From Tomocerus qinae (Eukaryota > Arthropoda > Collembola > Entomobryomorpha > Tomoceridae): a DNA stretch of 64,000 bases. Below, piece by piece: positions 23,872-60,037 of this stretch (the first letter of the stretch is position 1; every line of letters begins with the position of its first letter). The notes beneath the pieces were generated by a model. The model had not been told where the DNA came from, made no database searches, and saw nothing but the letters and a program-made list of their open reading frames with translations. The translations under genes and the position numbers were made by a program. The stretch lies in assembly GCA_020055645.1 (NCBI GenBank), contig CM034546.1, positions 65,472,001 to 65,536,000 on the forward strand, in the 5' to 3' direction.

Positions 23872-26800
23872 ATGGCTGAAAGAGAAAGTAGACGACTTAA
23901 GGGCTTGAAGCCCGAATTTGGGTACCTGTCGACGACGGTGGAAAAGAAAACCGTCAAAGGTCAAGAATGGACAAGACATACGAAAAGAGTTGAAAGTGAA
24001 CAATCAAGTAGTTCATCATCACTCATCGACCTGAACAGTGTTACAACACACGATGCCGAAAGCTGGTTGCAGAAGCCTCCAGTCTCTCCAAAAGATCAAA
24101 GGTCAGTCCGGACCACTTCATCCATGGCTAGTCAAAAGCGGTTTGAGCTGGAAATAACGGCAAAATTACGAGAAACTCAGCGACGAATGGAAGCCGAATT
24201 TCTTCGCAATAAAATGGAACGAGAACGAGAATTGGCTCGTCAGAAAATAGAACGAGAACAAGAATTAGCTCGTCAAAATGTTGAACGTGAGCAGGAACTG
24301 TCCCGTCAACGAGCAGAACAGGAAGAAGAATTAGCGCGACTTGAATTGAAGCACAAAATGGAAGAAGCTGAATTCAATGGTGAGTTAGAATTATTACGAC
24401 TCCTGGAAGAAAAAGAAAATTCTCAGTATCTAGGAAGTGACGATGACGAGGAACGCAACGTACTATCCAAGATATTCGACAAGCCCGAAATGGATTGGAC
24501 TGAGAGGAACGGGAACGCAAAAGTCGACCCACTAAAAACTTCTGTGGTAAATCCAACAACTAAAAAATTTAATTATGAACCAAATTTTGAAGCTATTGAC
24601 TCCAAAAATGAAAATACATGCGAACCGAATATTGAACCGAAGACGGAATCGATCACAGAAATGTCAGCTTTAACAGCAGCAATTACTGGTGCCTTCAATA
24701 GTATTGCTCTCGCGAACCAGACCAAGTTACCGACGACGCTTCCCGACATGGACACTTGGATGGCTAGACAAACATCACAGCGGAAGCTTACGCCTTTCTT
24801 TGGTGAACCCGAAGAGTGGCCAAATTTCAGCATTGAATTTAATGAAGTATCATCTCGCTGCAAATGGACAAATGGTGAGAAAATGTCGAAACTTAAAGAA
24901 GCTTTGAAAGGAGAAGCAAAATCGCAAGTTCAAAGTTTATTTAGTGTTGCGGACAATGTTGACAAAATAATGGAAACCCTCGAAATGTGCTTTGGGAGAC
25001 CCGATCAAATTATTAAGAGCCTTATCTCCAAAGCAAGAAGTACTCCGAATCCAAAGGAGGACAAGCCAGACACCATAATAAAGTTTTCTACTGCGGTGAA
25101 TAATTTGGTGACTACTGTAGGTACGTTAAATAAAAACAGTCATTTATCTAATCCCCAGTTAATCGAAGAATTGGTAGATAAACTCCCGCCATCGTACAAA
25201 ATGGAATGGGGTTTGTTTATTTCCGACAAGCAAGATGAACCGAGTCTATTGGATCTGAATGAACGGCTGAGAAAGTGGGCCAAGGCGGCTAGTTTTATCA
25301 GCACACCTGTGAAGACACCAGAAAATAAGACGCGACAAAGTGAAAAGTGGGATACGGAAAGAAAGCCAAATAAGCCCAAATCAACAAATAAAGTACAGTG
25401 GAAGGATCCCGTGCTTACCACAATGGACTCAGAATTGAAGAAAGAAGAGACAGACACAGGTTGTTTATTTTGTAAAAAATTTAATCATGAATTAAAAAAC
25501 TGTAGTCTATTCAAAAAAGAAACCAACAATCAGAAGTGGGCGTGGGTGACTGAAAACAAGCTATGTTTCTCCTGCCTTAGTCCGGGGCATAGAACAGCTG
25601 ATTGTGATTCGAAAAGGATCTGTGGTATCGACGATTGCAAGAGCTACCACCATCGCCAATTGCATAAAAAGATTACTAAAAAACCACAGGAACAGACTGA
25701 AGTCAACCTCAACGGACATACAGATGAAAACAAATTAGGCGGTAAAAAGAAGATAATTTTGAAAGTACTCCCTGTTATTCTGAAAGGACCAAGAGGAGAA
25801 GTTTCAACATTTGCCTTACTGGATGATGCATCGACCGTCACCCTAGTGAACTCGAAATTAGCTAAGAGTATCGGAGCAGTCGGCCCAGAAGTACCCTTAG
25901 ATCTAAAATGGATTGTAGCTGGATCAGCTAATCACAAATCCCATCAAGTGAAAATAGCAATTAGTGACATTGACAAGAATGAGACATTTTATTTGAATGA
26001 TGTGCGAACAGTGGACAACTTGGATCTCCCAGTACAGTCATTTAATGCAAAGGAGTTTTCCAAGAAGTGGAATTACATTCGGAAGGCTACAGCTGCCAGT
26101 CTTGTGAACGCAAAACCCATGATATTAATTGGACAGAACTATCCGGATTTAATAGTGTCAAGAGAAATTATTGAAGGTCCACCGACAGCACCGATAGTGT
26201 CCAGAACGAAACTAGGTTGGGTAGCACACGGAAATAATAGTGCGACTCAAGGTGACAAGAATCCAGAAGTTAATTTCCATATATTTCAAGAGGATAGTGG
26301 ATTGAACTCTCTCCATGAAATAGTGAAGCAATCATTCAACACTGACGCCTTCGGAGTGAAAGCTCTCATGAACGAACCGAAAGGCAAAGAACATTTGAGA
26401 GCAGAAAAAATTATGCAAGATACGACACGAAGAGTTGGGACTCATTTCGAAACTGGATTGTTGTGGAAAAAGGATAATGTTAAATTTCCTTCTAGCTACG
26501 CCTACGCCTTAAACCGACTACGAAACGTTGAGAAGCAAATGAGCCGAAAGCCGGAGTTTGCAGCCCAGTACACTCAACAGATGAACGACTATATAAGCAA
26601 AGGGTATGCTAGAAAACTTTCACCTGATGAATCCAAATTGGAAACTGAACGGACGTGGTACCTACCCCACTTTGGAGTTACGAATGTGAATAAACCTGGA
26701 AAGATACGGATGGTTTTCGACGCAGCAGCGAAAGTAAGCGGTGTTTCTTTAAATGATGAACTAATGAAAGGTCCAGATTTACTTTCTCCATTAGTATCTG

Positions 26801-29800
26801 TGCTGCTAAACTTCCGTATTAAGAAGATTGGATTCTCCGCCGATATTCGGGAGATGTTCCACCAAGTTGGTATACGAAAAGAAGACAGAAACTCTCAAAG
26901 ATTTCTATGGAGAGATATGGATAGCAGTAAACCTCCAGAAGTTTTTGAGATGGAAGTAATGACGTTTGGGGCTGCATGTTCTCCATCCCTAGCGCAATAC
27001 ATTAAGAACAGGAATGCTGAGGAAAGCAAAGCAGAATTTCCGGAAGCTGCACAAGCTATTATTGAAAGACACTATGTGGATGATTACCTCGATAGTGCCA
27101 ACAGTGAAGAAGATGCTACAAAATTGATAAAAGATGTGATCACTGTGCAGAGTCGTGGCGGATTTGACCTACGAAATTGGATGTGCAGTAGTCGACAAGT
27201 GTTAGCTGAACTACCTGCCGAAATTATATGCCCTGGAGGAAGAAACCTTCAGCCTAAAGACGACATGCCCATTGAAAGAGTACTTGGCTTGTACTGGGAC
27301 CCCAATTCGGACAATTTTGCTTTCACTTGTAATTTCAAGAAAGTGAAAGGTGAAATTCTACGAGGGGAGAAACGACCGACAAAGAGAGAAGTTCTTCAAC
27401 TTGTTTCTTCAATTTACGACCCACTTGGCTTCATTGCTAATTTTACTGTGAAGTCAAGAATTCTCCTACAGCAAATCTGGCGATCCGGAATTGGCTGGGA
27501 CGACGAAGTTTCAAATGACGTATTTGAAAAATGGATGTTATGGCTAAACGAACTTCAAGGAATTACAAATGTTCAAATTCCCCGTTGTTATACTCTACTA
27601 TTAAACCAACCGGAAGAAGTACAACTTCACATCTTTGCAGACGCCAGTGAAGAAGCTTTTGCCGCCATAGCCTTCCTGAGAGTAAGCAAAATGAATAAAA
27701 TTGAAACATCATTTGTTATGTCCAAATGTCGTGTAGCTCCTTTACGACCTTTATCGATGCCGCGATTGGAGCTGCAAGCTGCAGTGATGGCCAGCAGGCT
27801 CGGAGTTACCCTGCAAGAAACTCTTGACGTCAAAATTGACATAATCCATTATTGGAGCGATTCGATGACAGTTCTGTGCTGGCTAAGATCCGATGCCAGA
27901 AACTACAAACCGTTTGTAGCCCACAGACTTGGAGAGATCGACGAAAATTCGAAGATTGAAAATTGGCATTGGGTGCCAACCAAGATGAATGTGGCAGACG
28001 ATGCCACTCGAGCCGACAAGGAGTGTGACCTTTCTGGGGAAAGTAGATGGTATTTAGGGCCGCCCTTTCTAAAATTGCAAGAGTCGGAGTGGCCACGTGA
28101 AGAAATTAAAATTAATCAAGTAGAGAAAATTGGAGAATATTTGGTTCTCGTTGTTAACAATCCCGCTGTAGTGAAAGTAATCGAAGTAGAAAATTTCTCG
28201 TCTTGGAATAGATTAACACGAGTGACTGCATGGGTGAATCGCTATATTTACAATCTGAAATGCAAAAAGCCAGATCGTAATCTTGGAGAGTGCTTATCTC
28301 CGCAAGAAATCGAAGATTCAACTTTGGATCTCGTCCGATTAGCGCAGAAAGAATCTTTCGGGGAAGAAATTGAATTGTTGAAGAAATGCAAACCAATCCC
28401 TGTAAGCAGCCGCATTTACAAACTTTCGCCGATGCTTGATGATGGAGGAATTTTAAGAATAAAAGGAAGAATCCAACGTTCAAGTGAATTATCTCACTTT
28501 ACGAAGAATCCTATTATGTTGGATGCTAAGAATGCTTTTACGTGTTTGCTAATTCAGCACTATCATGAGAAAGCTGGTCATGCTGGAATGGAAATGGTCG
28601 CCAACGAACTGCGACAGAAATTCCACATTCTGAAATTGAGAAATGCTGTAAGATCAACCTGGAGAAATTGTCAGCAATGCAAAATAAATAAAGCCCAGCC
28701 CAAACCACCTCAGATGGGATTGCTGCCAGCCTGCCGTGTGAATAAACAGACAAGACCCTTTATGGAAACGGGAGTTGACTATTTTGGCCCGATTGAAATA
28801 GTGGTTGGACGACACCACGAAAAAAGATACGGCGTTTTATTTACGTGTATGGCCACCAGAGCCATTCATTTGGAAATTGCTGCGTCGCTATCAACCGATT
28901 CTGCAATAATGGCTTTACGTCGATTTATTGCTAGACGAGGATGTCCACGGAAGCTTTTTAGCGACAATGGAACTAACTTCCGTGGTGCGGACCTGGAGTT
29001 ACGTGAAGAATTAGCCAAACTCGATCAAGAAAAAATAACTGATACGATGACGACTGCTGGAGTGGAGTGGAAATTCATACCCCCCTCTTCCCCTCACATG
29101 GGTGGGGCCTGGGAAAGGAAAGTGAAATCAGTGAAAGTTGCGTTGAAAGCAACTTTAAACTGCAGATATCCGAAGGAAGAAGTTCTTCAAACTTTGATGG
29201 CTGAAGCCGAAAATATGGTGAATAGTCATCCGTTAACCAGAGTTTCAGATGACCCATTTGATGATGAGTGCTTGACTCCCAACCATTTTCTTATTGGTAC
29301 GTCAAGCAATGCGCCAATACCTGGAATTTTTGAAGAGAAAGATCTTTGTCTCCGCAAACAATGGAAAACAGCGCAATGTCTTGCCGACATGTTTTGGAGA
29401 CGCTGGCTAAAGGAGTTCCTGCCAACTTTGACTTGCCGCAAGAAATGGCATATGAAAACAGATCCAGTAAAAGTTGGAGACCTAGTTTTTATTGCGGACG
29501 GCAATGCACCACGAAACCAGTGGCCCAGAGGACGCATAACTGAAATATTTCCTGGAGAAGATGGAATTACGCGTGCTGTTGACATACAGACAGTCTCCGG
29601 AAAGTTTCGTCGACCCGTGACAAAGATTTGTATACTTGATGTAGACCAGACTGAGACCCTAAAGGCTGTGGATTTACCGCGACAGCAACTTCCACTAAAG
29701 GGAGCTTTAAAGAAGAAATCGGAGACAGAAGTAGATGTTGGTCGAACCCGGATTCAACCACCGAGGGGAGTGTCACTCCGATTTAAAGAAAGAGCCAGAA

Positions 29801-29949
29801 ATTGCCACGTACGATTTGAGCCAATGGAAGACGAGGAGGAGAGTGCTACGCGGCTTTCGAGAAGGGACGCAATGAGGAAGAAAGAAAAGCAAGCAGACCG
29901 CAACGAGAGAGCAGAGAGAGAGGACGTTCATTTTGATATTCCACAATAA
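23872..29949 (+). CDS. BEL/Pao gag-pol polyprotein
   Basis: One uninterrupted ORF of 2,025 residues. In order: a charged coiled coil (about 80-180, repeated EREQELARQ), a DUF1759-like gag (about 300-470), two Cys-His zinc knuckles (about 530-590), an aspartic protease (LLDDAST near 648), reverse transcriptase with YVDD near 1068, the Pao-type A17 region, RNase H (FADASEEAF near 1255), an HHCC integrase zinc finger (about 1562-1605), the integrase core (GVDYFGP, SDNGTNF, GAWERKVK; about 1633-1760) and a C-terminal DUF5641-like part. This order defines BEL/Pao. The last 60 codons and the stop lie inside the 3' LTR. No frameshift or stop is seen, so it may be functional. Confidence 0.95.
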   Translation: MAERESRRLKGLKPEFGYLSTTVEKKTVKGQEWTRHTKRVESEQSSSSSSLIDLNSVTTHDAESWLQKPPVSPKDQRSVRTTSSMASQKRFELEITAKLRETQRRMEAEFLRNKMERERELARQKIEREQELARQNVEREQELSRQRAEQEEELARLELKHKMEEAEFNGELELLRLLEEKENSQYLGSDDDEERNVLSKIFDKPEMDWTERNGNAKVDPLKTSVVNPTTKKFNYEPNFEAIDSKNENTCEPNIEPKTESITEMSALTAAITGAFNSIALANQTKLPTTLPDMDTWMARQTSQRKLTPFFGEPEEWPNFSIEFNEVSSRCKWTNGEKMSKLKEALKGEAKSQVQSLFSVADNVDKIMETLEMCFGRPDQIIKSLISKARSTPNPKEDKPDTIIKFSTAVNNLVTTVGTLNKNSHLSNPQLIEELVDKLPPSYKMEWGLFISDKQDEPSLLDLNERLRKWAKAASFISTPVKTPENKTRQSEKWDTERKPNKPKSTNKVQWKDPVLTTMDSELKKEETDTGCLFCKKFNHELKNCSLFKKETNNQKWAWVTENKLCFSCLSPGHRTADCDSKRICGIDDCKSYHHRQLHKKITKKPQEQTEVNLNGHTDENKLGGKKKIILKVLPVILKGPRGEVSTFALLDDASTVTLVNSKLAKSIGAVGPEVPLDLKWIVAGSANHKSHQVKIAISDIDKNETFYLNDVRTVDNLDLPVQSFNAKEFSKKWNYIRKATAASLVNAKPMILIGQNYPDLIVSREIIEGPPTAPIVSRTKLGWVAHGNNSATQGDKNPEVNFHIFQEDSGLNSLHEIVKQSFNTDAFGVKALMNEPKGKEHLRAEKIMQDTTRRVGTHFETGLLWKKDNVKFPSSYAYALNRLRNVEKQMSRKPEFAAQYTQQMNDYISKGYARKLSPDESKLETERTWYLPHFGVTNVNKPGKIRMVFDAAAKVSGVSLNDELMKGPDLLSPLVSVLLNFRIKKIGFSADIREMFHQVGIRKEDRNSQRFLWRDMDSSKPPEVFEMEVMTFGAACSPSLAQYIKNRNAEESKAEFPEAAQAIIERHYVDDYLDSANSEEDATKLIKDVITVQSRGGFDLRNWMCSSRQVLAELPAEIICPGGRNLQPKDDMPIERVLGLYWDPNSDNFAFTCNFKKVKGEILRGEKRPTKREVLQLVSSIYDPLGFIANFTVKSRILLQQIWRSGIGWDDEVSNDVFEKWMLWLNELQGITNVQIPRCYTLLLNQPEEVQLHIFADASEEAFAAIAFLRVSKMNKIETSFVMSKCRVAPLRPLSMPRLELQAAVMASRLGVTLQETLDVKIDIIHYWSDSMTVLCWLRSDARNYKPFVAHRLGEIDENSKIENWHWVPTKMNVADDATRADKECDLSGESRWYLGPPFLKLQESEWPREEIKINQVEKIGEYLVLVVNNPAVVKVIEVENFSSWNRLTRVTAWVNRYIYNLKCKKPDRNLGECLSPQEIEDSTLDLVRLAQKESFGEEIELLKKCKPIPVSSRIYKLSPMLDDGGILRIKGRIQRSSELSHFTKNPIMLDAKNAFTCLLIQHYHEKAGHAGMEMVANELRQKFHILKLRNAVRSTWRNCQQCKINKAQPKPPQMGLLPACRVNKQTRPFMETGVDYFGPIEIVVGRHHEKRYGVLFTCMATRAIHLEIAASLSTDSAIMALRRFIARRGCPRKLFSDNGTNFRGADLELREELAKLDQEKITDTMTTAGVEWKFIPPSSPHMGGAWERKVKSVKVALKATLNCRYPKEEVLQTLMAEAENMVNSHPLTRVSDDPFDDECLTPNHFLIGTSSNAPIPGIFEEKDLCLRKQWKTAQCLADMFWRRWLKEFLPTLTCRKKWHMKTDPVKVGDLVFIADGNAPRNQWPRGRITEIFPGEDGITRAVDIQTVSGKFRRPVTKICILDVDQTETLKAVDLPRQQLPLKGALKKKSETEVDVGRTRIQPPRGVSLRFKERARNCHVRFEPMEDEEESATRLSRRDAMRKKEKQADRNERAEREDVHFDIPQ
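29763..29770 (+). other. Polypurine tract
   Basis: GAGGGGAG directly before the 3' LTR, the expected plus-strand primer. It is unusual in also being coding, since the gag-pol ORF runs through it. Confidence 0.75.
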
Positions 29950-31949: not shown

Positions 31950-33152
31950 TTACTTCTTTAAAGACTTGATTGCATCAGTATATGAATTCTTAAACAGTTG
32001 CTCAATGTCATTGGCCTGAACCATCCTCAAAGGACTAACCTTTAGCGTATTTAGCGCGTTGTCGGTCTTTATGGAAAATGTTTTTAGTAGTTTTTTGGAA
32101 GATTCATTTCCCTCCCAGTTTTTGCCGAAATTGTTGTACGGATTAGCTGGGTCCAACACCAACGGCACTTGTCCCTTTATGTCCAGAGGAATTGGGTGAC
32201 GTGTGGTTATTTCATCTTCAAACAAGATTTTCAGCCCATCAAAATTTGCGAGAAGAATGAGGAAACGTTCAAAGCATTTCAAGTATGATCGATTGCCTTC
32301 CACACGAACAGAGTGGATCATCACCAATTCAATCATAGATTTGGCTCCAGAAATGTTCCCAGGAAGTTCACCCAGAGTTTTGAACCAATACTTGGCCAGG
32401 CGAACCATTTCATTGACAAAGCCTTCTTGTTTAGTGTAAAATTGGGTTGTGGCTTCAGCCAAGCCTCCGCTGTACATGTAGCAGTTCTTATCTGGATTTT
32501 GCTTGATTATGTCCAGGGTTTTCTCCTGCTGATCGTTAGTTAACCCTTTTGGAGAAATACCTTGAGTGTTGCTGACAAAATTTTGTGCCGGCAGAAGATC
32601 AAACTTAAAAGCATCCACTTCAAACTGAATCGAAAATTTTGTCGTTTTAATGTTCTTCAAATTGATTTTGCTTTGAGTGCTTGAAAATTTTTCCAACGTC
32701 TTTTTAAAAACGTAGAGAACTTCGTCGAATGGAGGTCCTTGGCAGTTAACAAACACCACAATATCAAAATCAGAATCCTTGATGTTCGTGTTCTTTCCAT
32801 TGCTTCCAGTATGATAATGTCGTCCTATGCTGTATTCTTTACAACGCTTGAGGACATTTACCACCTGTGAAATTTCGTTTGATAATTAATAAAACTTCAA
32901 TCTCAATATATGATTACCTATTACATTTTTGTTAGTAGAAGTTCAAGATTTCTAAGACTAGTTTTCTATGGTATTTTTAACAAGGCGTAATTATTACTAC
33001 TTGAATATAGAGTGTAATATCACAGAAAACAATTAAGTTTTGATCATCTACTTTACCTCTTCAGCTATCAACGTCCCTTCTTTCAGGTATTCCTCGCTCG
33101 GTAATATATCTTCGGCTAGTTTTGCAAATGCCGTGTTCAATTGAAATTCCAT
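31950..33152 (-). CDS. OAS-like nucleotidyltransferase, copy 1
   Basis: Two minus-strand exons, 33057-33152 and 31950-32864 (phase 0), give 336 residues, close to a single-unit 2'-5'-oligoadenylate synthetase. The active site is intact: GS at 52-53 (TGSNGKNT), the metal-binding pair in DSDFD (64 and 66), and the third Asp in FDLLPA (121). The C-terminal domain has GAKSMIELVM and PLVLDPANPYNN, matching the OAS1 C-terminal signature. OAS enzymes are cytosolic double-stranded RNA sensors that make 2'-5' oligoadenylate; related cGAS-like receptors make cyclic dinucleotides. Which product is formed here is not visible. The cGAS zinc thumb is absent. A close paralogue is at 42386-43865. This family is absent from most insects as far as I know. 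Confidence 0.85.
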
Positions 33153-35823: not shown

Positions 35824-37006
35824 CTACGAATGGAAATAAATTTGTGGTTATCAGAATTGAAGGTTACTTATCAGAAAACGAGAAAAGTATGATGTAATAC
35901 AAGATGAAAGAAACAAAATTTTCTTATAAAAGACAACCCGTTTTTCTAGTTTCACTTATTGGGGCAAAAGTTGCATTTTGCAGAAAGCAAAAAGCAGCAT
36001 TGTTATTTTTTCCGTGGAAAAATGTTTCTTTAATAGTAGGAAAATTCCCTTTCGTAAGGGAAATGGGTTGTTCAAGCGCATTACTGCCGATTAACTATTA
36101 ACTAGGTTAATTCTCACCTTCCGTCAATGTGTGTAAAGCAAATCGAAGGGAATAGCAAAAGAAACAATGTAATGAAACAAGCATAGCAGTGGGTGTGGTG
36201 GCAGCAAGAGAAATGTGTCAGTATGAGTTCGATACCTGGGCAAGGCAAGACACATAATTATGCAAATTTTCAAACGAACAAAGAGCATATGATTTCATTT
36301 ATTTTAAGGGAGGATTTCCTTTTGTTGAACAATATCCATAGCTTGCATATTCTATACGGCGGAGAAAGATGTACACGCTATAAAGGGAAGATGTGTCAAA
36401 AATAATTTTCTGGGTGGTAGGGTTTCTATATGTGGTTAAACTTGACCCCATGTAAAAAATATTTCAAGTATTTTAATATACTTAAATTATTCTTAAGCAT
36501 TTAATGTTTCCTAGTAGAATGCTTTAATCAAAGTCTAACAATGAAATATTTTAGCTGTTTCCCTAACAAATCAATTAACTATAAATAATGCGAAGCTAAT
36601 TAGCAAACTTTCAATCTCGGTGGCAATTTAACTTGGAAATTAATCCCAAAACATTCGGAAATACAAATATTTATTAAGTATAGTGAAACTACCAGATTAG
36701 ATATTCTTTTCTTTTTCACGCGAGTGAATCTTATAAAAATTAGTCTAAATTTATCAAATAGCAAAAATATCAAATAAAATTGCTCAGTGAATATAGATTT
36801 TCGTTTTTAAACAATAAAATGACATATAAGCTAATACGTAAAGCAATGAATTAGGTTAAAAAATCGTCTAAATAAAAGGATACTTTTCTGACTGTGCTGG
36901 ATCTTGATATTTCATCTGCTTATTTATGGGACTAACTATTTTAAACCATGCTAATTGCTTACCTGATTTGAATATTTATTTTATGTTCTTGAAATAAACT
37001 GGTGTT
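35824..37006. other. Degenerate profilin intron and unassigned sequence
   Basis: About 36435-36500 (TTGACCCCATG, TTTTAATATACTTAAAT) matches intron 3 of the other profilin copies at 18291-18360 and 38466-38520. The rest is AT-rich without exons. Confidence 0.5.
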
Positions 37007-37500
37007 GTCAAAAAGGAGATTGGTGTTGACAAAAAGGAGATTGGTGTTGACAAAAAGGAGATTGGTGTTGACAAATAAGAAATTTGTGTTGACAAAAAGG
37101 AGATTGGTGTTGACAAAAAGGAGATTGGTGTTGACAAAAAGGAGATTGGTGTTGACAAAAAGGAGATTGGTGTTGACAAAAAGGAGATTGGTGTTGACAA
37201 AAAGGAGATTGGTGTTGACAAATAAGAAATTTGTGTTGACAAAAAGGAGATTGGTGTTGACAAAAAGGAGATTGGTGTTGACAAAAAGGAGATTGGTGTT
37301 GACAAAAAGGAGATTGGTGTTGACAAAAAGGAGATTGGTGTTGACAAAAAGGAGATTGGTGTTGACAAAAATGAGATTTGTGTTAATAAAGGAGATTGGT
37401 GTTGACAAAAAGGAGATTGGTATTGACGAAAAGGAGATTGGTGTTGACAAAAAGGAGATTGGTGTTGTCAAAAAGGTGATTGGTGTTGACAGAAAAGAAA
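37007..37500. repeat. 21-bp minisatellite, about 23 copies
   Basis: Unit TTGGTGTTGACAAAAAGGAGA, repeated in tandem with few variants. Two units have the variant AAATAAGAAATT, at about 37069-37089 and 37216-37236, exactly seven units apart, which implies a higher-order 147-bp duplication. Because 21 is a multiple of 3, one frame on the plus strand and two on the minus strand stay open for 130-184 codons; these are repeat by-products. Confidence 0.95.
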
Positions 37501-38319
37501 GTGGTGTCGACATAACGATTTTTTGATTATTATGTCTGTTGGCGATTTAGTGTTGACTAAAAGGTTGTGAACCGTGAACCTAATAAATATGTATTCTATC
37601 GACTTGTGGCAAAATCACTTAGTACTTTATTGACATTCCATAAAAATAAAAGGTTATAGAAATAGTAAATTGTCCAAATTCACTCCGATTACATTACAAT
37701 TAATTTAACGCATTTATAACAACGCTAACGTAGAGAAACTACAATATTTTAGGCCGTTATTATCAAGGCAGGTAAAATTTTAGATTGCATAAAATTACCT
37801 TATGTCACATCATCTTGTGACAATCTAAAATTTTACTTACCTTATTGGTTATTACATTAAGTAATTTATTAATAATTCGAAACATTCTTATCCCGGTGTA
37901 AATTTGTTTTATATGTACAACTAGGCCATCAGTATAACTAGTGTAGCTCATTGCTTTTTGTAATATGCATTGCATAAACGCTTGCACATTTTGTATTTGG
38001 GTTCACCCTACCACACGTATAGACATAGGTAGATTGGTAAAATGGTTTTTTCAAGTCTACGATTATAATATAGAGATATGCATAGTATAAGCGCTTTCGC
38101 ATTTAGGCTCTCCTATCAGACATACATAGTAGATAATTTATATAGATGCACAGATTGGTTGGTAAATTTATTGCTTTATCTCAGACTGTGGTTAAATATA
38201 TGAATTGTATAATACATATATGATTTTAACATTGTGATTTTAATTTGCTTCACTATTTTAGTATGAAATAAAAATGGCCATTGAACACCAAGGATATTGG
38301 GATGACCGGATCGTTAATT
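37501..38319. other. Intergenic, small inverted repeat
   Basis: Arms GTAAAATTTTAGATTG (37772-37787) and the complement (37821-37836) bound a 33-bp spacer, a tiny MITE-like unit. About 37990-38220 resembles 41350-41470 and 60180-60240, a dispersed repeat. No gene. Confidence 0.5.
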
Positions 38320-42385: not shown

Positions 42386-43865
42386 CTATAGAGTAGCAGA
42401 TGAATTCTTAAATAGTTGTTCAATGTCATTGGCCTGAACCATCCTCAAAGGACACACCTTAAGCGTATTTAGCGCGTTGTTGGTTCTTATGGCAAAATTT
42501 TTGAGCATATTTTTGCAAACATAATTTCCCTCCCAATTTTTGGCAAAATTGTTGTACGGATTAGCTGGCTCCAATACTAACGGCGCTTGTCTCATTATAT
42601 CCAGAGGAATTGGGTGCCCCTTGGTTATCTCATCTTCAAATACGATTTTCAGCCCATCAAAATTTGCGAGGAGATTGAGAAAACGTTGAAAGCATTTCAA
42701 AAATGACCGATTGCCTTCCACACGAACAGAGTGGACCATCACCAATTCAATCATAGATTTGGCTCCAGAAATGTTCTGAGGAAGTTTAACGCTCAGATTT
42801 TTGAACCAATGTTTGGCCAGGCGAACCATTGCATTAAAAAAGCCTTCTTGCTTAGTGTAAAATTGGATTGCGGCTTCAGCCAAGCCTCCACTGTACATAT
42901 AACAGTTCTTATCTGGATTTCGCCTGATTTTATCCAGGGTTTTCTGCTGCTGATCGTTAATTAGCCCCATTGGAGAAATACCTTGGGTGTTGATGACAAA
43001 ATTTTGTGCAGGCAGAAGATCAAACTTAAAGGCATCCACTTCAAACTGGATCGAAAATCTTGAAGTTTCAATTTTCTTCAAAAGGATTTTGCCTTGAGAG
43101 CGTGAAAATTGTTCCAACGACTTCTTAAAAACGTTGAGAACTTCTTCAAATGGAGGTCCATGGCAGTTAACAAACACCACAATATCAAAATCAGAATCCT
43201 TGATGTTCGTATTCTTGCCATTGCTTCCAGAATGATAATGTCGTCCTATGCTGTACTCCTTACAACGCTTGAGAACATTTACCACCTGTGAAATTTCGTT
43301 TGATGATTAGTAAAACTTCAATATATGATTACCTATAGCATCTTTGTTAGTAGAAGTTCAAGATTTCTAAGACTAATGTAATGCAATAGTTAAAAACATA
43401 TTAGGTAGTCTAACAGACCGTGTCTTTGCACATATCTACATAGTCAAAGGTAGCCTGCTCTAAATCAAATGTAAAAAGTATTTTTTCCAAGGAAGGTTAA
43501 AAATCGTAAAATCGTTTTTTCCAAGCGTTATTAGTTCTTATCAGTGTCATTTTGTCGCCCCTCATCCGCCGGCATTAAATTCTAATCCGTCGGCATTTAA
43601 TTCCTTTTCTATTTGTAGTATTTTATAATAAGGATATATACCTAGCTAATCACCCTCAATATTTTAGTTTTATATAGCTGATAGTATTTTTATCAAGGTG
43701 TAATTATTACTACTTGAATATAGAAGAATATCATAGAAAACAATTAAAAGTTGTGATCATATACTTTACCTCTTCAGCTATCAACGTGCCTTCTTTAAGG
43801 TCTTTCTGGCTCGGTAATATTTCTTCGGACAGTTTTGCAAATGCCGTGTTCACTTGAGATTCCAT
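42386..43865 (-). CDS. OAS-like nucleotidyltransferase, copy 2
   Basis: Exons 43770-43865 and 42386-43285 (phase 0) give 331 residues. The whole protein aligns with copy 1 and keeps TGSNGKNT-type SGSNGKNT, DSDFD, FDLLPA, GAKSMIELVM and LVLEPANPYNN, so the nucleotidyl-transfer site looks intact. Exon 1 has the same length and phase as copy 1. The C-terminus is shorter and different (NSSATL then stop) where copy 1 ends DAIKSLKK, probably from a small frameshift near the end. Expected to be a cytosolic nucleic-acid sensor making a nucleotide second messenger; ligand and product are not known. Tandem duplicate within the profilin/OAS block. Confidence 0.85.
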
Positions 43866-49772: not shown

Positions 49773-51340
49773 GGTACTAGAAGACTTTACAAATTTTATC
49801 CAAAACTACTGTGATAATTGTATTGATGTTAATTGATTCCAATAATCACCACTAAACAATTAAATACAGATTACTAAATGGTATTTTCCATGCTACTAAA
49901 AATCATGTTTTTGCCTACCAATAATCTTTTACATAAATTATAACTGTTTTACCTTGACATTGACATTAAATGTGTATTGTTGACATTGGAAAACCTTTAA
50001 TTATCTTTTCTTTAGGTTTGCACTGAAAAATAAAAACTCATTATGAGTATGCTACCTGTATTTTATGGATACCTTTTGTATGATTGCAACTCAAACGATT
50101 GTTCTAAGTTTTTCTACACTAAAGCTCATTCACTGCAGTTAGTTTTCTGAGTACTATATTCATTATCACTATGACTATTACAGCGTCAATGCTTGAGTTG
50201 GTGAATGGTGAATAATAAAGTATAGTGTTCAGAAAACTAACCGCAAGACGGCAGTTTTTGTCGCATCGAGTTCATTATTATTTTGATTCGCCTCTAACTA
50301 TTCTGATTTAGCGTAGATAGTTCACCACAGTAGTATACAAATACATAGGATAAGCACTATGTTCTTAACGAAAAATTTAATAAAGGCTTTAAACCCTATT
50401 TTTACACTGATGGAAAACAACTCCAGATAGTTTTCATATGCAAAGTATATTTTATAATTAAATTAGTAAAACGAGAGAAGAATAATGGTCTAGGAAGTTA
50501 GTGTGTCCCTATCTCCTGATACAATGGTTTTTTACATTGTCGCAGTAATGATAAAATGGTTTGTTACTTTATGCCAGCCATGGTAATTTGGTATGTTACA
50601 TTGTAATGTTAAGCAAACGATATTATGGTTCTTGACGAATTCACTAGCCTGTTATTCTTTACAAATCCTTTCTTTTCAATCTGTCAATCTTTTACAAATC
50701 AGTAAAAATGTTTTGTTAAAGGGGCACACCCCCCGTCGAGGTATCTAGCGAAATTTGGCATGAACTCGATGTATTTAAATTTGAGTTGAGCAAAATAACA
50801 TTCAAATTTTACTTTTTTAGGAAATCAAAGAAAACTCAAAAGCGCTTCGGTTTTCAATCTTGCTTTTTTACCTAATATTCGTACAGGGTCCTAGAGGGTC
50901 ACATGTTTCCGTTTTGTTCAAAAAGTCGTTTTTTATTATTTAAAAACAATTATAAACCTATCCCGCCAAAACTTTTTGGTAGAATGGCCACTATGACCTT
51001 TTTAGGTTAAAATCATAAAATAACCGGGTTTTAAGATTTTACCTACCCGTTTGATAGCCAAAAACCCAACCCAACAACCAAAAAAAGCCAAGTTTTTGGG
51101 TTTTACATGCCCTTTTCGGTTGTACTTAAATCTTACTTTGGATGCAACAGGAAACTGACATGCATACAATTGGTTTTAGGTGAAAATAACAGATGTTAAA
51201 GTTTTCGCTTCTGAATTGCCATCTAAAAGACCGGCGATTGGTTTTACCACTCCTGCTCAATTCAAATGTGGTCCTCATAAGCCCCTTGAGATTTCTGAAC
51301 TGCTGGACTGAGCTGAATTTAATTTTAATTTTATTTACAG
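49773..51340. other. Intergenic, one small MITE
   Basis: Duplicated profilin 5' flank to about 50133, then a MITE at 50134-50243. The rest to 51340 has no exon; no kinase N-lobe is present before the fragment at 51341. Confidence 0.5.
50134..50243. repeat. 110-bp MITE, GTTAGTTTTCTGA ends
   Basis: Inverted ends (TGC-GTTAGTTTTCTGA, ACTATA) of about 40 bp. It interrupts the AAAGCTCATT flank that is continuous in the other copies near 20070, 40075 and 46785. Confidence 0.65.
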
Positions 51341-51926
51341 TCCTATGCAATTAAGGGACATCACGGTAACAGCGAAAGATCTTCTCAGATGGTCTCATCA
51401 AGTCTCTAGAGCCTTGGAATATTTAGAGCTCAAAAAGGTCTAAACTTGTTGAAAATAATTAAAAGGAAAATAATTGCAATGATATACATTAAAAATACAA
51501 TTTTATTACATAATCTGCAAAAATTAAAAAATAATAATTTAAATGAAAAGGTTATTCATGGAGATTTGGCATCGAGAAATGTTTTATTATTTGAAAATGA
51601 CATAATAAAAGTTTCTGAATTTGGACTAAACAGGTAGATGCAGCAAAATTTGAAAATAATTATAATCAATTTATCTTTTGATTCATTTGATTTAAATAAG
51701 AATTCATCGACAAGGAACCCCTTCCATTTCAATGGATGACTATTGAAGCTTTAAAAGATTTGTCATTTCCCCACAAATCTGACATCTGGTCATTTGGAAT
51801 CACAATCTGGGAAATATTTTCTCTTGGCGAAACTCCGTATTCTGGGATATCGTGGACAATTGATTTTGTTGACAGGCTTTCTGATGGTTTACGAATCCAC
51901 AAACCGAAATATGCCACCACATCCCT
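51341..51926 (+). pseudogene. Tyrosine-kinase C-lobe fragment
   Basis: Three exon relics, 51341-51437, 51551-51633 and 51715-51926, match exons 11, 12 and 13 of the receptor gene at 54496 with the same or nearly the same lengths. They encode LLRWSHQVSRALEY, IHGDLASRNVLLF, and [20 protein letters not shown]. The second relic lacks the activation-loop part and would break the frame on splicing; its DFG is EFG. No N-lobe, membrane or ectodomain exons are found upstream, and the last exon is missing downstream. It is a partial tandem duplicate, most likely dead. Confidence 0.8.
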
Positions 51927-52676
51927 GTTTGTTCTATTTTAATTGTTTCTTTAAGTTTATTCGTTATGTAAGGAATTTAAAATTCCTCTTAATGCTCGAT
52001 TAGAAATGAGAACAAAAATGATATCCATAAAATGACAAGGCTTGCAATTGGAATGCAAAACCATAAATTTAAGTATAAAGCTTAAAAATAGCAGAGGTTT
52101 CGTTACTTCAACTGATAAGCTGTCCTTTAAGTTGGCTACATTAAGCAAACACGCAATTATTATTTAAACATAATACTTTATTTATATTGTACAGATACAA
52201 TATCCTTGAAAGTTGTTAACGTTTGCAGAAAATACAAAAAATATCTACAAATAAAATGTGCAGGTCTATTGTTTTCCATATTTTCAAATTCTAAAGTAAA
52301 TATAATTTTTTTAGTTCTATAGAACTATCTTACATTTCAGATGCAGTCTGAGTTTTGGGCCCAATTTCATTAAAAAATGAGAAATCCAAATGTGAATAAA
52401 TTAATAGGTGTGAAAATGTCTTTACTTAGGCGTCTTCTTCAAATTACCATAATGACTATAAGAGGAATTCATAATCAACAATCTACTAGATGAAATTCTC
52501 TATAAAGATATTAAATACTGTATTACTAAAAATTAAATTACTAATAAATGCATCCCTGTGCTATAACAAAAACCTGAGATAAAGCAATTTTACCCACCTA
52601 CTTTAATTATCTATCAAACTGGTCTCGTAGTGCATATGTCCACTTCCTTCCTCTAAATTATGTCACATACGACATT

Positions 52677-54495: not shown

Positions 54496-57400
54496 ATGAC
54501 GAATTATTCTGCAATGAATTCAACAAGTTTTAAAATTTCGTTTATATTGGTTGCTTTTGCGGCCTGTTTTTCAAATTCAATGGAAGTGAACAATATTGAA
54601 GAATTCCAACAATTCTTTGACATCTCATCTGTTCCTATAGACAAGACAAGTAAGAAATATTTTTTTGTTCAGTCAAAATTTACATACTGTTTGATCTACT
54701 CTTATAAGTTCATTTTGCAATATTTGTATGAATTAAACCTTAAAATTGAATAGTGACCAACAAACACGGAAGCTATGTGGTTTGCATACTAAATTCTTGG
54801 GCCTACCGGCGAGAGGGTGAGGGGAAATTTGATATTGAAAGACATTATGATGGACGTCTATGCACACATCTTGTCTATCGTTCTATTTTACTGAACAAAG
54901 GGACATTGGGGCTGACGCCTAAAGACTATGATCTAGACATTAAATCTGGTATGCTAATTTATATCCAGTTCATCGATAAATAATAAATAATTTATATCCA
55001 GTCCATCGATTAAATAATAAATAGAGACTTTCCAAATGACATTGTATAATCGTATATCAATGTTTGCATTTTGTGGTGTAGGATATTTCAACAAAGTAGT
55101 CAAAATGAAGAAAAATAATCCTGACCTGAAAGTCCTACTATCTGTTGGTGGTTATGACGAAGGAACAGATAATTTTCTTCGCATGACTGGTTCAGCCGGA
55201 TACAGAAAAACATTTATACGAAATGCAACGGAAACAGTAAAGTACGAAATGATATCACTTCACAAATCTTGGAACCATTTTAATTTGAATCAATGACTTT
55301 CGTTTAGATCATTTGGATTTGACGGTCTTAATTTAGATTGGGAATATCCACCAGAAGGTAGTAAAAATCATTTCACAACCCTGGCTGAGGTAAAGATACC
55401 ACATTTAGATTTATTAATTTACTTATTATTAATACGTCATTAATAAGTTATTAATAAGTCATTAATAAGTTATTAATAAGTCATAATAAGTAATAATAAT
55501 AAGTTTTGATATGATAAGTTAGTATTACATCAGAACTGAGATTTCTAATTTCCATCCACACTTTAGTGATATTTTTTGATATGTTTATCATTTAATAATT
55601 ATAAATACGAACTTTAATAATGAAAGCATCGAAGATAATTTCTAATCTAATTTAAAATGTCATTAAAGGAATTCAAACAAGAATTCCAGAGGTCTAGACT
55701 AATTCTTACGACGACCATTTCTGGGGATTTGGATATAACAATATCTGGTTACGATGTCCCTAGGATTTCTAAGATATTTGACCTTATTCTCATTATGGGA
55801 TTTGACTACAATGGCCCCTGGGGAAGTATTACAGGACACAATGCCCCCTTATACGAAATTAAGAGTATCTCAAAAATTTTAAATTATCTTGTGAAGGAAG
55901 TTAAAGTTAACCCTCAGGTTTTAATTCTGGGCGTTCCATTGGATGGAAGACCATTCCGTCTCCAAATGCAGAAAAATGCTTTGCACGGATTGGCATCGAG
56001 GACTACAGGTGGATTTCCTGGTCCATTTGCGTCAGAGAGTGACATGTGGGGATACAATGAGGTTGGAGTCTAATTTTTTTAATTCTACATTATATACCGA
56101 TTATGTAGTTTCCAAAATGTAGACCAACGACAATGGACAACCAAAAATAGGGTTGTTATTGTCATTCAATACGAATAAAGATAAAAAATTGTATTAATTT
56201 TAATGTTAGCAAAATTAAATCAAAATTAATTAATTTGAATTACTGAAAAGATTTGCCCACTGCTTAAATCGGACAAAAAATGGAAAACTTTCTGGGACCG
56301 ATCGAATTTAGTTCCCTTTACCACAAATGGCAGTCATTGGATCAGTTTTGATAACCAGGACAGTATATTTGCAAAAGTATGGATGGCAAAGGAATATAAA
56401 TTGAGAGGAATTATGGCTTGGAGCATCGACACCGATGACTACAATGGAAAGTGTGGAAAGTACAAGTATCCTTTGTTACGGACTATTAATTACGCTCTGC
56501 AAATGGATATTCCACAAGATAGCCACTCTAAAATGCCGTCCCTATGCACACTTTACAAATCAACAGGGAGTCAACAATTATTCAATCTACTCAAACCTAA
56601 AATTATTGCCACCAACAACACGACGCCACTTCATAATCCTACCAAAACGTCAAAAGTACGATGTTCTGTGCAAGGAAACCCTCGTCCACGGATTCGATGG
56701 TTTAAATCAAAAGAGGTTAGGCTCTTTTCATCCACCATTTCGTTATTTATTGGTTTTCATACACATACAACTATAAAGTATGGCTTTCTGGTACCGGTAT
56801 ACCTATACCTTTGTGATTATACAACTTCTATTTAGCTTAATTGACATATCATTTCACTCTAAAATAGTTTATGCTGTAATGTTATATAATTTTATACAAT
56901 TTTATATAACTTTATATAAATTTATATATTTTATACATTTTTATACAATTTTATACAATTTTATATAATTTTATACAATTTTATATAATTTTATATAATT
57001 TTATACAATTTTATACAATTTTATATAATGTTATATAATTGTATGGTGAATGGTGTATTAATTACACTATAGGAGATATACAGGTATAAAATTCAATATT
57101 TTATTATTTGTGCAGGGTAAAGTCACTATGGATGTCGAGGTCTTCAACACCAACCACCATGGTAGTCCAAGTTTGGGAAGCCATTCAGAATTAAGCAGTC
57201 CTCTGTTTAATTGTGGTCCCCACAAGTCCATTATAGAAACTCAGGAGGCCAAATTCACCTTGAATGACAGTCGTCCAGGAAATTATTTTTGCCAAGCAGA
57301 TAATGTTTTTGGAATGGATAAAAAGTATTTTGTATTGTCAGTTGGAGAAACCAAACCAACTAAAAAAGGAGGCCGTGGTGTTCCTTGGGTTTGGATAGGA

Positions 57401-60037
57401 GTAGGTTTAAGTTTTATCGCAGTCGTAATCGTAAATGTATGCATTATTGTATACTGCTGGAAGAAAAGGTCACAGAAAAAACAGGTACGTGATAAAAACA
57501 TGCAATTAAAATATCGGATCACATTAAAAATTGTAAAATTGCTATAAATAATCCTTTCCCAACCAAAAATTAAATGTTTTAAAGTGAAATCGCATTTTGA
57601 ATTAACTGCTGTATAGCTACATAATACAAATTTGAACCTTAATTGATAAATTCTTTAGGAGGTTCTCACTCAACGTGAACTCAGAGTGTTTTTCAGAGGT
57701 AGTACCAAGAAAAGACCTGGAGCTCAAGATATTTATGAGAATGGACAAGTTGCAATTGAAAATATTCCTTACTATTCTTCATACGAGATTTTGAAAGATT
57801 ATGAAATTGGTATGATATTGGCATTTACAATATTTATAGTAGTAAATTATTATATAGATTATGGAAACAAGAATATCTAAACTACCATAGACGAAACAAA
57901 CTGCTATATTAGTTTATTTTATTTGCTACAGATGAAAGCAGAATTTTGGGCGATGGAGTTTTCGGCATAGTCTTCTTGGGTAAAGTAAATGGAGAGTCTG
58001 TAGCAGTAAAGTCTACAAAGGAAGGGGCTGATAAACAGTATCTTGTTGCCTTGTTATCCGAGTTAAAAATACTTATCTACATTGAAAAACACCCGAACAT
58101 TGTTAATTTAGTGGGTGCCAGTACCATCAACTTAAATAAAGGTATATATCATTATTTACTGTCATTACTGCGACAAGTCTATTTAAAAAAATACTATTAT
58201 TAATCATAATAATAACAAGACTGCAATAAATAGATATGGATATATTTCAGGAATGCTTTACATATTTGTGGAATACTGTCCTCTTGGAAACTTGCAGAAC
58301 TATTTAAAAAATAACTGCCGGGATTTGTTAATTTCACTTATAAAGGACGATCAGTGGAATCAAAACTTAAGGTAGCTGCATATTATTGTGTTTCAACTTA
58401 AGGACGTGTGTGGACTTTGGTTGCCATGTTAGCGAGTAATTTATTACGGGAAGCACAACAATAGATGCACACCACTGAGCTCTTGCATCGTGGGTGGTTT
58501 CTATTGTCTGACGTCCCGTAGTAAAATTGCAGTTGTTACCATAGTTACCAAAAAGTTCGTAAATAAAATCAGAAAAAAATGATTCCGTGGTTTTGGTAAG
58601 TCGTAAAATTATAATAAAATTCAATAAAAAAGAGGAAAGAAAATGAGGGCGAGCTTGTGTTGGGCGAGTGTTGGCAAATGTGACCAAAAATTCAAAATAA
58701 TATATTTCTTTCATGTTTTTCCCTACTCTTAATCAAAATTGAATTTTTGATGATTTAAAAAATGATTTTCGAAAATCGGGCTTTCATGCTCGTCATAAAA
58801 ATCTTGGTACATTTTGATTCTGAAAACCGCATTACTGTACGTTTAGCCGATTTGCAATTGCATTTTACATTTTCTAATTAGAAATGTGTTTTTAATTACT
58901 TTCAAAAATAAAGCCCTAAAAACGTGCCGGAAAACATGACAACAACCAAGGACCTTCTTCACTGGTGCCATCAAATAGCCAAAGCATTGGAATATTTGGC
59001 TTCGAAAAAGGTTTATTGATAATATTAATAATTCTAAAATGTTAGTTTCTTCATATCTCATGAACCCTTAAGTTAAAATTACTAAATGACGCAAATTTTG
59101 CTCACATCAAAGGTTATTCATGGGGATCTGGCAGCAAGAAATGTTTTACTTTTCGAAAAGAATATAGTAAAAGTTACTGATTTCGGACTATCACGCAAAC
59201 TGTACGATTATTCCAACTACGTAAAAAATAAGCAGGTAGAAATACGATTTGAAATTGGGGTTGTCTCATTTTTTTCTTATTTCATCTTAACATATATTAA
59301 TTGACAGGAACCCCTTCCGTGGCGATGGATGGCTATTGAAGCTTTAAAAGATTTATCATTCTCCCATAAATCTGACGTTTGGGCATTTGGAATCACAGTC
59401 TGGGAAATATTTTCTCTTGGCGAAACTCCTTACTCTGGAATATCGTGGACGACTAACTTCTTGGACAGACTTATCGAGGGTTTACGATTACACAAACCGA
59501 AATATGCAACCACGTCTTTGTTAGTTTATTTCTTTTACAATTCAACTTTTAGAATAGAGCTTTAAGCTGGCTGTGATGGTTTAAATCGAATGCCTTTTCA
59601 AACATCAAAATGGCTTTTTGTTACTTTATTTGAATTATTTAAAAAACGTAATGCTCCGAAACAATCTATACTTGCAATTAGTTGTCTTCACTGTTTACCG
59701 AATTTCATAAATAGGTAAAGCCACATGTCAAACCATCACAACGTTGTCACCAATCCTCCGTGTACTAATAGTTTTCATTTTTGTTCAGATATCATTTCCT
59801 AGCCAAGTGTTGGGAAGCAAATCCACAGGATCGTCATAACCCTGAAGATCTACCTCATTACTTCGCTAATCTACTTGAGGAGAAGTTTTCAAAGGTGGCA
59901 ATTTAATCAGACTCTTTATACTAATTTTCATTGAAATTATGTTATAAATGTCCAGGATTAAAAAATTGTTATATTTTGTATAGGACTATACTATGGTAAC
60001 GGTCCAAGAACCAGACGACCTGAACACATTGCTTTAA
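54496..60037 (+). CDS. Receptor tyrosine kinase with GH18 chitinase-like ectodomain
   Basis: Fifteen exons (54496-54649, 54754-54948, 55082-55241, 55308-55389, 55669-56061, 56251-56715, 57116-57484, 57659-57809, 57932-58141, 58251-58371, 58914-59010, 59113-59235, 59308-59519, 59789-59894, 59984-60037) keep phase throughout and give 963 residues. Signal peptide about 7-28. GH18 barrel about 52-400: [27 protein letters not shown] (175-184), [26 protein letters not shown]. Ig-like domain about 440-560 (Cys542). Membrane helix 574-597. Kinase 657-946: GDGVFG 663-668, VAVK683, HGDLAARN 802-809, DFG 822-824, CWEANPQDR. Expected to bind a chitin-like glycan or a protein and signal by tyrosine phosphorylation; ligand unknown. 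Odd: Asn178 replaces the middle Asp of the GH18 motif, Gly803 the HRD Arg. Confidence 0.88.
55430..55503. repeat. ATTAATAAGT tandem repeat in intron 4
   Basis: About six copies of TTATTAATAAGTCATTAATAAG-like units, a simple repeat in the receptor gene intron. Confidence 0.8.
56880..57040. repeat. TTTTATA(C/T)AA tandem repeat in intron 6
   Basis: More than a dozen copies of a 10-12-bp unit ATTTTATACA or ATTTTATATA in the intron between the two Ig-coding exons. Confidence 0.85.
58372..58913. other. Large receptor-gene intron, no exon
   Basis: At 542 bp this is the longest intron of the gene, between exons 10 and 11. It is less AT-rich in its first half (about 58390-58560), which looks like an inserted repeat; the 115-residue minus ORF there has no recognisable motif. 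Confidence 0.5.

What the first reader, a model, noticed from the sequence alone, without database searches (positions are those of the whole stretch)
54496..60037. A receptor tyrosine kinase with a GH18 chitinase-like ectodomain
Fifteen exons with good splice sites and continuous phase join a signal peptide, a GH18 barrel, an Ig-like domain, one membrane helix and a full tyrosine kinase in one 963-residue protein. The GH18 domain lies in six exons and the kinase in seven, with the membrane helix between, so it is not two abutting genes. I know of no described receptor of this architecture. It would link glycan (chitin) sensing, or a GH18-like protein-binding fold, to tyrosine phosphorylation.
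Basis: partly seen in the sequence, partly recalled or inferred. Interest (0 to 1): 0.93.

Follow-up and report, generated by a model that had tools for sequence, protein, structure and literature searches.

The report
Springtail kinase receptors with chitinase ectodomains
This arthropod gene, most likely from a springtail, joins a largely disarmed chitin-digesting enzyme, as an outside sensor, to a growth-factor-type signalling kinase; it belongs to a large family of such receptors in its genome, and other springtails have sister receptors built on other antimicrobial proteins.

Summary
The finding is real. Fifteen exons (54496-60037) encode 961 residues: signal peptide, GH18 (Pfam 225 bits), weak Ig, one membrane helix, tyrosine kinase (250 bits). 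It is not two abutting genes: a copy 69 Mb away matches 14 of 15 exons in order, dN/dS 0.13 (GH18) and 0.14 (kinase). GH18 followed by a kinase recurs in 14 of 20 hand-picked stretches of this genome; in 12 of the 14, GH18 end and membrane helix share one open frame. Kinase motifs stay intact (12 of 15 loci); GH18 sites are lost (MxYD in 0 of 30 copies). The window copy keeps the catalytic Glu beside D-to-N and Y-to-F changes. The ectodomain probably binds rather than cuts. The kinase belongs to a springtail radiation of PVR/VEGFR-type RTKs; others carry lysozyme, GH17, antifungal-peptide, trypsin/LDLa or Sema ectodomains. A Daphnia record (Kit-like) has this layout with another kinase origin (AU p 3e-9). 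Plants have GH18 receptor kinases. My searches listed no paper on such animal receptors. Ligand, transcript and function are untested.

The parts
54496..54649 (+). exon 1: start codon, hydrophobic N-terminal stretch (signal peptide, by eye)
   Evidence: L046 has a matching piece of 17 residues
54754..54948 (+). exon 2: start of GH18 domain (aa 52-116)
55082..55241 (+). exon 3: GH18 (aa 117-169)
55308..55389 (+). exon 4: GH18 catalytic motif [11 protein letters not shown] (D->N, catalytic Glu kept)
55669..56061 (+). exon 5: GH18 (MxYD motif is MGFD here)
56251..56715 (+). exon 6: end of GH18, linker and first half of Ig domain in one open frame
56877..57044 (.). 10-base tandem repeat inside intron 6 (no AATAAA/ATTAAA in this intron)
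57116..57484 (+). exon 7: second half of Ig domain, membrane helix (about 57392-57460), basic stop-transfer
57659..57809 (+). exon 8: juxtamembrane segment ([12 protein letters not shown]), alike in springtail PVR-type RTKs
57932..58141 (+). exon 9: kinase N-lobe (GDGVFG, VAVK)
58251..58371 (+). exon 10: kinase hinge and kinase insert
58914..59010 (+). exon 11: kinase
59113..59235 (+). exon 12: kinase catalytic loop HGDLAARN and DFG
59308..59513 (+). exon 13: kinase C-lobe
59789..59894 (+). exon 14: end of kinase
59984..60037 (+). exon 15: C-terminal tail and stop (no match in L046)
51018..52459 (+). decayed copy of the 3' half of an L046-like GH18-RTK (Ig part and the exon 11-14 region; exons 8-10 missing; DFG reads EFG)

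Best explanation
The gene encodes a single-pass receptor tyrosine kinase whose sensor is a GH18 chitinase fold turned into a binding module. Shown by computation: the joined architecture, its repetition as a large family on chromosome C1 of this genome, purifying selection on both halves, loss of the GH18 active site in the family, intact kinase motifs in most loci, and a PVR/VEGFR-type kinase of springtail descent. Inferred: the GH18 cleft binds a GlcNAc polymer (chitin or chito-oligomers from fungi, or from the animal's own cuticle); a multivalent polymer brings receptors together; the kinases trans-phosphorylate; PVR-type adaptors (Ras/ERK, PI3K; general knowledge) carry the signal. I think the likeliest role is immune or barrier recognition, because sister receptors use other antimicrobial folds and because the ectodomains diverge faster than the kinases.
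For: Architecture. Collinear paralogue L046: exons 1-14 matched, dN/dS GH18 0.13, Ig/TM 0.36, kinase 0.14, all 0.17 over 862 codons, dS 1.1-1.6. 14 of 20 GH18 stretches followed by kinase exons; in 12 of those 14 GH18 end and membrane helix in one open frame, in the other two the frame runs from GH18 into an Ig domain. The 15 own-genome GH18-RTK kinases in the tree form one group (87/77, 85% of bootstrap trees). Binding not cutting: Met, Tyr and Asp of MxYD kept in 8 of 8 rows of other GH18 genes of the genome (6 genes) and in 0 of 30 copies of the C1 stretches (18 of the 30 lie in loci with a kinase); catalytic Glu in 0 of 11 copies with a recognisable motif exon, 30 copies scanned; L046 reads DWQFP; Daphnia P0003 has Met for Glu. 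Four kinase motifs found in 12 of 15 loci. GH18 block less alike than kinase block in 100 of 105 pairs. Immune theme: springtail RTKs with c-lysozyme, i-lysozyme, antifungal-peptide and GH17-like ectodomains.
Against: No transcript, protein or ligand data. The window copy keeps the catalytic Glu and the Asp next to it, so weak activity is not excluded. Several residues that line a chitin cleft are changed (Y27I, F58S, W99Y, Y267D; human CHIT1 numbers recalled), and the 30 family copies keep no Trp at the W218 position, which speaks against chitin as the ligand of all of them; some of those alignments are weak (E up to 4.5e-4). The control is not clean: one of the six other GH18 genes (L002) has His for the catalytic Glu. 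Sister receptors with Sema or Kelch ectodomains do not fit an immune theme. Fast divergence can also reflect weak constraint: dN/dS is below 1 in each block measured, so no positive selection is shown.
Confidence: 0.55

Rival explanations
1. The GH18 fold is a protein-binding module, like the imaginal disc growth factors or YKL-40 type chitinase-like proteins, so the receptor senses a secreted protein (a growth factor or a self marker) and not a glycan.
For: Loss of catalytic residues and of cleft aromatics; PVR-type kinases bind protein growth factors (general knowledge); Sema and Kelch sister ectodomains.
Against: Exon 6, with the W358 position (a sugar-binding Trp, recalled), is 67.5% identical between window and L046, more than exons 3 and 5; several sister ectodomains come from wall-degrading enzymes or antifungal peptides.
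Confidence: 0.3
2. Cuticle sensor: the receptor binds the animal's own chitin and reports moulting or wounds. A variant of the best explanation that differs only in the source of the ligand.
For: GH18 nearest to arthropod proteins named chitinase 2; arthropod chitinases act on own chitin (general knowledge).
Against: A single sensor would do; here there is a large, diverging, clustered family.
Confidence: 0.15
3. Enzyme-receptor: the window copy still cuts chitin and makes its own signal.
For: The window copy keeps D180 and E182 of the motif, D243, R291 and W385.
Against: Second motif Asp is Asn and the Tyr of MxYD is Phe; mutating these cripples chitinases (recalled); the closest paralogue L046 has Gln for Glu with the GH18 domain still constrained.
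Confidence: 0.05
4. Artefact: two neighbouring genes, a chance splice model, or a dead copy.
For: No transcript proof; AT-rich DNA gives many GT/AG pairs; intron 7 has three AATAAA/ATTAAA words.
Against: Open frames join GH18 to Ig and Ig to the membrane helix; collinear paralogue under purifying selection; 14 further loci; Daphnia record.
Confidence: 0.02

Closest known systems
PVR / PDGFR-VEGFR type receptor tyrosine kinases of arthropods
   Same: Kinase phylogeny, kinase insert, HGDLAARN loop, PLPWRWMA segment, juxtamembrane motif; best PDB kinases over the full domain are PDGFR-alpha and VEGFR2.
   Different: GH18 plus one weak Ig in place of the usual run of Ig domains.
Plant GH18 receptor-like kinases (tobacco CHRK1)
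   Same: GH18 ectodomain and intracellular kinase; PMC5485988 counts 91 plant sequences (passage).
   Different: Plant Ser/Thr receptor-like kinase (recalled); the review predicts enzyme activity, whereas the family here has lost its site. Separate origin inferred from kinase type.
Daphnia pulicaria 'mast/stem cell growth factor receptor-related protein Kit-like isoform X2' (P0003)
   Same: GH18, Ig, membrane helix, tyrosine kinase (model).
   Different: Kinase belongs with three other Daphnia proteins (100/99); one clade with the window rejected, p 3.35e-9. Catalytic Glu is Met.
Arthropod GH18 proteins named chitinase 2
   Same: GH18 tree places the window beside Orchesella cincta 'putative chitinase 2', P0006 (95/95).
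   Different: No kinase. DxDxE and MxYD kept in the bee protein P0007; P0006 and the midge proteins P0011-P0013 have lost residues too.
Chitinase-like lectins and growth factors (YKL-40, IDGF)
   Same: GH18 fold with disabled catalysis (recalled).
   Different: Soluble, not receptors (recalled).

Membership tests
GH18 (PF00704) | Profile match over the whole domain | tested here: met
   225.5 bits, positions 2-317 of 317; OfChtIV E 1.1e-78
GH18 active chitinase | DxxDxDxE and MxYD intact | tested here: not met
   DGLNLDWE and MGFD in the window; other copies lose more
GH18 active chitinase | Chitin hydrolysis | not testable with these tools
   needs an assay
PVR/VEGFR-type RTK | Kinase groups with PVR/VEGFR-type kinases | tested here: met
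   rows were collected by similarity to this kinase, so other RTK classes were not sampled as outgroups
PVR/VEGFR-type RTK | Ectodomain of several Ig domains | tested here: not met
   one weak Ig beside GH18
PVR/VEGFR-type RTK | Catalytic Lys, HxD..RN, DFG | tested here: met
   12 of 15 other loci
PVR/VEGFR-type RTK | PVF/VEGF ligand | not testable with these tools
   no binding data
Plant CHRK1-type GH18 receptor-like kinase | GH18, membrane helix, kinase in one chain | tested here: met
Plant CHRK1-type GH18 receptor-like kinase | RLK/Pelle Ser/Thr kinase | tested here: not met
   tyrosine kinase motifs [16 protein letters not shown]; best solved relatives are animal RTKs
Venus kinase receptor (atypical arthropod RTK) | Venus flytrap ectodomain | tested here: not met
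   no such Pfam match

The most novel reading that the evidence does not exclude
Springtails have evolved an animal counterpart of the plant receptor-kinase repertoire: PVR-type tyrosine kinases have been coupled again and again to antimicrobial proteins, several of them disarmed (GH18 chitinase, GH17 glucanase, c- and i-type lysozyme, antifungal knottin, trypsin/LDLa), giving families that read microbial cell-wall polymers and signal by tyrosine phosphorylation; Daphnia reached the chitinase version on its own.
Probability: 0.45. Interest if true: 0.96.

Novelty: new variant of a known kind. Interest (0 to 1): 0.9.

Why it matters
Arthropod innate immunity is thought to sense microbes mainly through PGRP and GNBP proteins and the Toll and IMD pathways; receptor kinases for wall polymers are a plant hallmark (general knowledge). 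A large family of RTKs with chitinase, glucanase, lysozyme and antifungal-peptide ectodomains would be a second route, close in logic to plant LysM and lectin receptor kinases, and would make pathogen sensing by tyrosine kinases directly testable. It also shows how antimicrobial enzymes can be reused as sensors by losing catalysis, with two separate kinase backgrounds for the GH18 version.

Tried and rejected
Two abutting genes: rejected (open frames across the domain borders, collinear paralogue, repeated loci). One shared origin with Daphnia: rejected for the kinase, weakly disfavoured for GH18 (p 0.0375; only 21 domains, long branches warned of). Divergent GH18 in other database RTKs: none of the 120 listed kinases matches a GH18 profile (best E 0.9); P0003 is not among those 120. 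The O. dallaii clade without Pfam ectodomain: Pfam gave nothing clear, AlphaFold a poor model (mean pLDDT 56.4), but phmmer with the GH17 part of P0006 matched some members. Lysozyme domain in this genome: one match, no kinase within about 1.5 kb. Antifungal-peptide domain: 16 matches; of 15 loci read, one (L044) lies before a kinase. The automatic membrane-helix scan (sense 2.2-3.3 where found, antisense at most 1.7) missed L009 and L013; those two I read by eye. No fold search was run.

The binomial figure (3e-20 to 4e-15 for 14 of 20) is only an illustration: the 20 stretches were picked by hand and kinases cluster on C1.
Full report
WHAT IS THERE. The gene was rebuilt from the DNA. Fifteen exons between 54496 and 60037 join with continuous phase over 14 GT-AG introns to 961 codons and a stop. 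Pfam finds GH18 at residues 60-390 (225.5 bits), a sub-threshold Ig at 443-546 (24.3 bits, cut-off 30) and a tyrosine kinase at 659-928 (250.4 bits). The membrane helix lies within 571-600 with a basic tail. The closest solved GH18 is the insect chitinase OfChtIV (E 1.1e-78); the closest kinases over the full domain are PDGFR-alpha and VEGFR2 (an EGFR tandem construct heads that list because several pieces add up).

NOT TWO GENES. Exon 6 carries the end of GH18 and the first half of the Ig domain in one open frame; exon 7 carries the rest of the Ig domain and the membrane helix. The window lies at C1:65472001-65536000 of a 334 Mb assembly. A paralogue at C1:134.197 Mb (L046) matches exons 1-14 in order; exon 1 matched over 17 residues only and exon 15 gave no hit. 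Over 862 codons dN/dS is 0.13 for GH18, 0.36 for Ig/TM, 0.14 for the kinase, 0.17 in all; dS is 1.1-1.6, so near saturation.

A LARGE FAMILY. PF00704 gives 143 matches in this genome (201 candidates, 125 scored). I fetched 20 stretches of 8-10 kb around GH18 matches on C1, chosen by hand from the listing. In 14 of 20, PVR-type kinase exons follow on the same strand (L009, L010, L011, L013, L014, L016-L019, L022, L024, L025, L027, L028); in 6 of 20 (L012, L015, L020, L021, L023, L026) none lies within the stretch. Several loci have two GH18 pieces before one kinase, which may be one long receptor or a GH18-only neighbour. In 12 of the 14, GH18 end and a membrane helix share one open frame without Ig; in L022 and L028 the frame runs from GH18 into an Ig domain, as in the window and L046. 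L027 has stops in its kinase stretches and looks decayed. In a tree of 65 kinases (181 columns) the 15 GH18-RTKs of this genome that could be placed form one group, 87/77, in 85% of bootstrap trees (L019 was too short). So one fusion in this lineage, then duplication, is the simplest reading.

SENSOR, NOT ENZYME. Eight rows (L001-L008) from six other GH18 genes of the genome keep Met, Tyr and Asp of MxYD; 0 of 30 GH18 copies read in L009-L028 keep all three (18 of the 30 lie in loci with a kinase, 12 in loci without one). The control is not perfect: one of the six, L002, has His for the catalytic Glu. Of 30 copies scanned for the motif exon, 11 had a recognisable one (score 30 or more) and none of the 11 had the catalytic Glu (A, S, S, S, S, Q, S, S, K, N, Q). 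The window copy is the least changed: it keeps the catalytic Glu but has D-to-N in the motif and MGFD for MxYD. L046 has Gln for Glu while its GH18 domain stays under constraint. The four kinase motifs sought (glycine loop, VAVK type, HxD..RN, DFG) are found in 12 of the 15 other loci; L019 ends early, L028 lacks a recognisable HxD, in L027 none was found. Site numbers in human CHIT1 terms are recalled.

DIVERGENCE. Among 15 loci (14 and the window) the GH18 blocks have median pairwise identities 0.30 and 0.42, the kinase blocks 0.63, 0.71 and 0.66; the second GH18 block is less alike than the exon 9 kinase block in 100 of 105 pairs. In two young pairs dN/dS is 0.14 and 0.12 for GH18 and 0.04 and 0.08 for kinase (L010/L011; a third kinase block had no changes, and one GH18 block was dropped for a stop), and 0.64 and 0.37 against 0.27, 0 and 0.04 (L016/L017). 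All are below 1.

A SPRINGTAIL RADIATION. The kinase search returned 1833 proteins, best 120 listed. By my count 53 of the 120 bear springtail names (Allacma 15, Folsomia 8, Orchesella 30). Of these 53, 10 carry a recognised domain other than Ig beside the kinase: c-type lysozyme (P0039, P0084), destabilase or i-type lysozyme (P0059), trypsin with LDLa repeats (P0041, P0044), LDLa (P0048), Sema/PSI/TIG (P0037), Kelch with Ig (P0064), and 5 or 4 antifungal-peptide repeats (P0049, P0051). Four more O. dallaii proteins have a GH17 glucanase-like ectodomain (66-120 bits by phmmer with residues 441-779 of P0006; P0115 30 bits, the rest of that 16-row clade no clear match); P0006 itself passes the GH17 cut-off only narrowly (32.8 against 28.2 bits). 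None of the 120 matches a GH18 profile. In P0039 the catalytic lysozyme Glu (position recalled) aligns with Leu; the GH17 Asn-Glu of P0006 aligns with Ser-Arg in P0147 and Ser-Asp in P0061 (that this is the acid/base is recalled). The trypsin triad seems kept (by eye). These are predicted proteins; their models were not checked. In the window's own genome an antifungal-peptide receptor lies at C1:79.19 Mb (L045): four repeats by eye, membrane helix in the same frame as the last repeat, then kinase, grouping with P0049 and P0051 (93/79, not a starred branch).

CONVERGENCE WITH DAPHNIA. P0003 from Daphnia pulicaria, labelled Kit-like in NCBI, has GH18 (short at the N-terminus), Ig (29.6 bits, just under its cut-off) and kinase. 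In the tree of 83 kinases (83 of 124 rows with a kinase; multi-kinase proteins dropped, only the first 28 other rows taken) its kinase sits with three other Daphnia proteins at 100/99, while the window sits with Allacma P0037 at 97/81; in the later tree, with paralogues, L046 is the window's sister and P0037 lies outside, unresolved. One clade for window and P0003 is rejected, p 3.35e-9. In the GH18 tree the window sits with Orchesella 'putative chitinase 2' (95/95); one clade with P0003 has p 0.0375. A model of P0003 shows a confident GH18 barrel, Ig-like strands, a helix at 576-610 and the kinase (mean pLDDT 77.4, pTM 0.45).

LITERATURE. Ten searches of an open-access library listed no paper whose title or abstract start points to an animal RTK with a chitinase ectodomain or to springtail RTKs. 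Three listings were cut: 25 of 55, 10 of 19, 20 of 936. Seen beyond listings: passages of PMC5485988 (GH18 receptor kinases in plants, CHRK1), PMC9894429 (a VEGF receptor gene in a Daphnia resistance region) and PMC12355970. Most subscription papers and all preprints are outside the library.

VERDICT. The architecture is certain short of cDNA (about 0.97). That the GH18 domain is a binding sensor is likely (about 0.85). That the ligand is a chitin-like polymer is a reasoned guess (about 0.5), and an immune role likewise.

Noticed in passing
51018-52459: Decayed copy of the 3' half of an L046-like GH18-RTK, pieces 72-85% identical in DNA to L046, exons 8-10 missing, DFG changed to EFG.
   Followed up: yes
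L045 (C1:79190500-79195000): Receptor kinase with four antifungal-peptide repeats (by eye) as ectodomain in the same genome, akin to Orchesella P0049 and P0051.
   Followed up: partly
P0147, P0061, P0071, P0072 (Orchesella dallaii): Receptor tyrosine kinases with a GH17 beta-1,3-glucanase-like ectodomain, Glu of the aligned Asn-Glu changed in P0147 and P0061, in a clade of 16 listed paralogues.
   Followed up: partly
G000 chromosome C1: PF07714 first look gives 1298 candidate kinase stretches in the genome, many listed ones in clusters on C1: an unusually large kinase set.
   Followed up: no
31953-32885 (-) and 42389-43306 (-): Two related genes with 2'-5'-oligoadenylate synthetase domains (OAS1_C, NTP_transf_2), an antiviral type of enzyme.
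   Followed up: no
8216-9724 (-) and 14550-15959 (-): Two related F-box-like proteins (the second below the curated cut-off).
   Followed up: no
23872-29946 (+): BEL/Pao retrotransposon polyprotein in one open frame.
   Followed up: no
37000-37512: 24.5 copies of a 21-base repeat, open in several frames.
   Followed up: no
P0006 (Orchesella cincta): 'Putative chitinase 2' record fuses a GH18 domain with altered active site to a GH17 domain preceded by its own signal-like stretch; probably two genes merged.
   Followed up: partly
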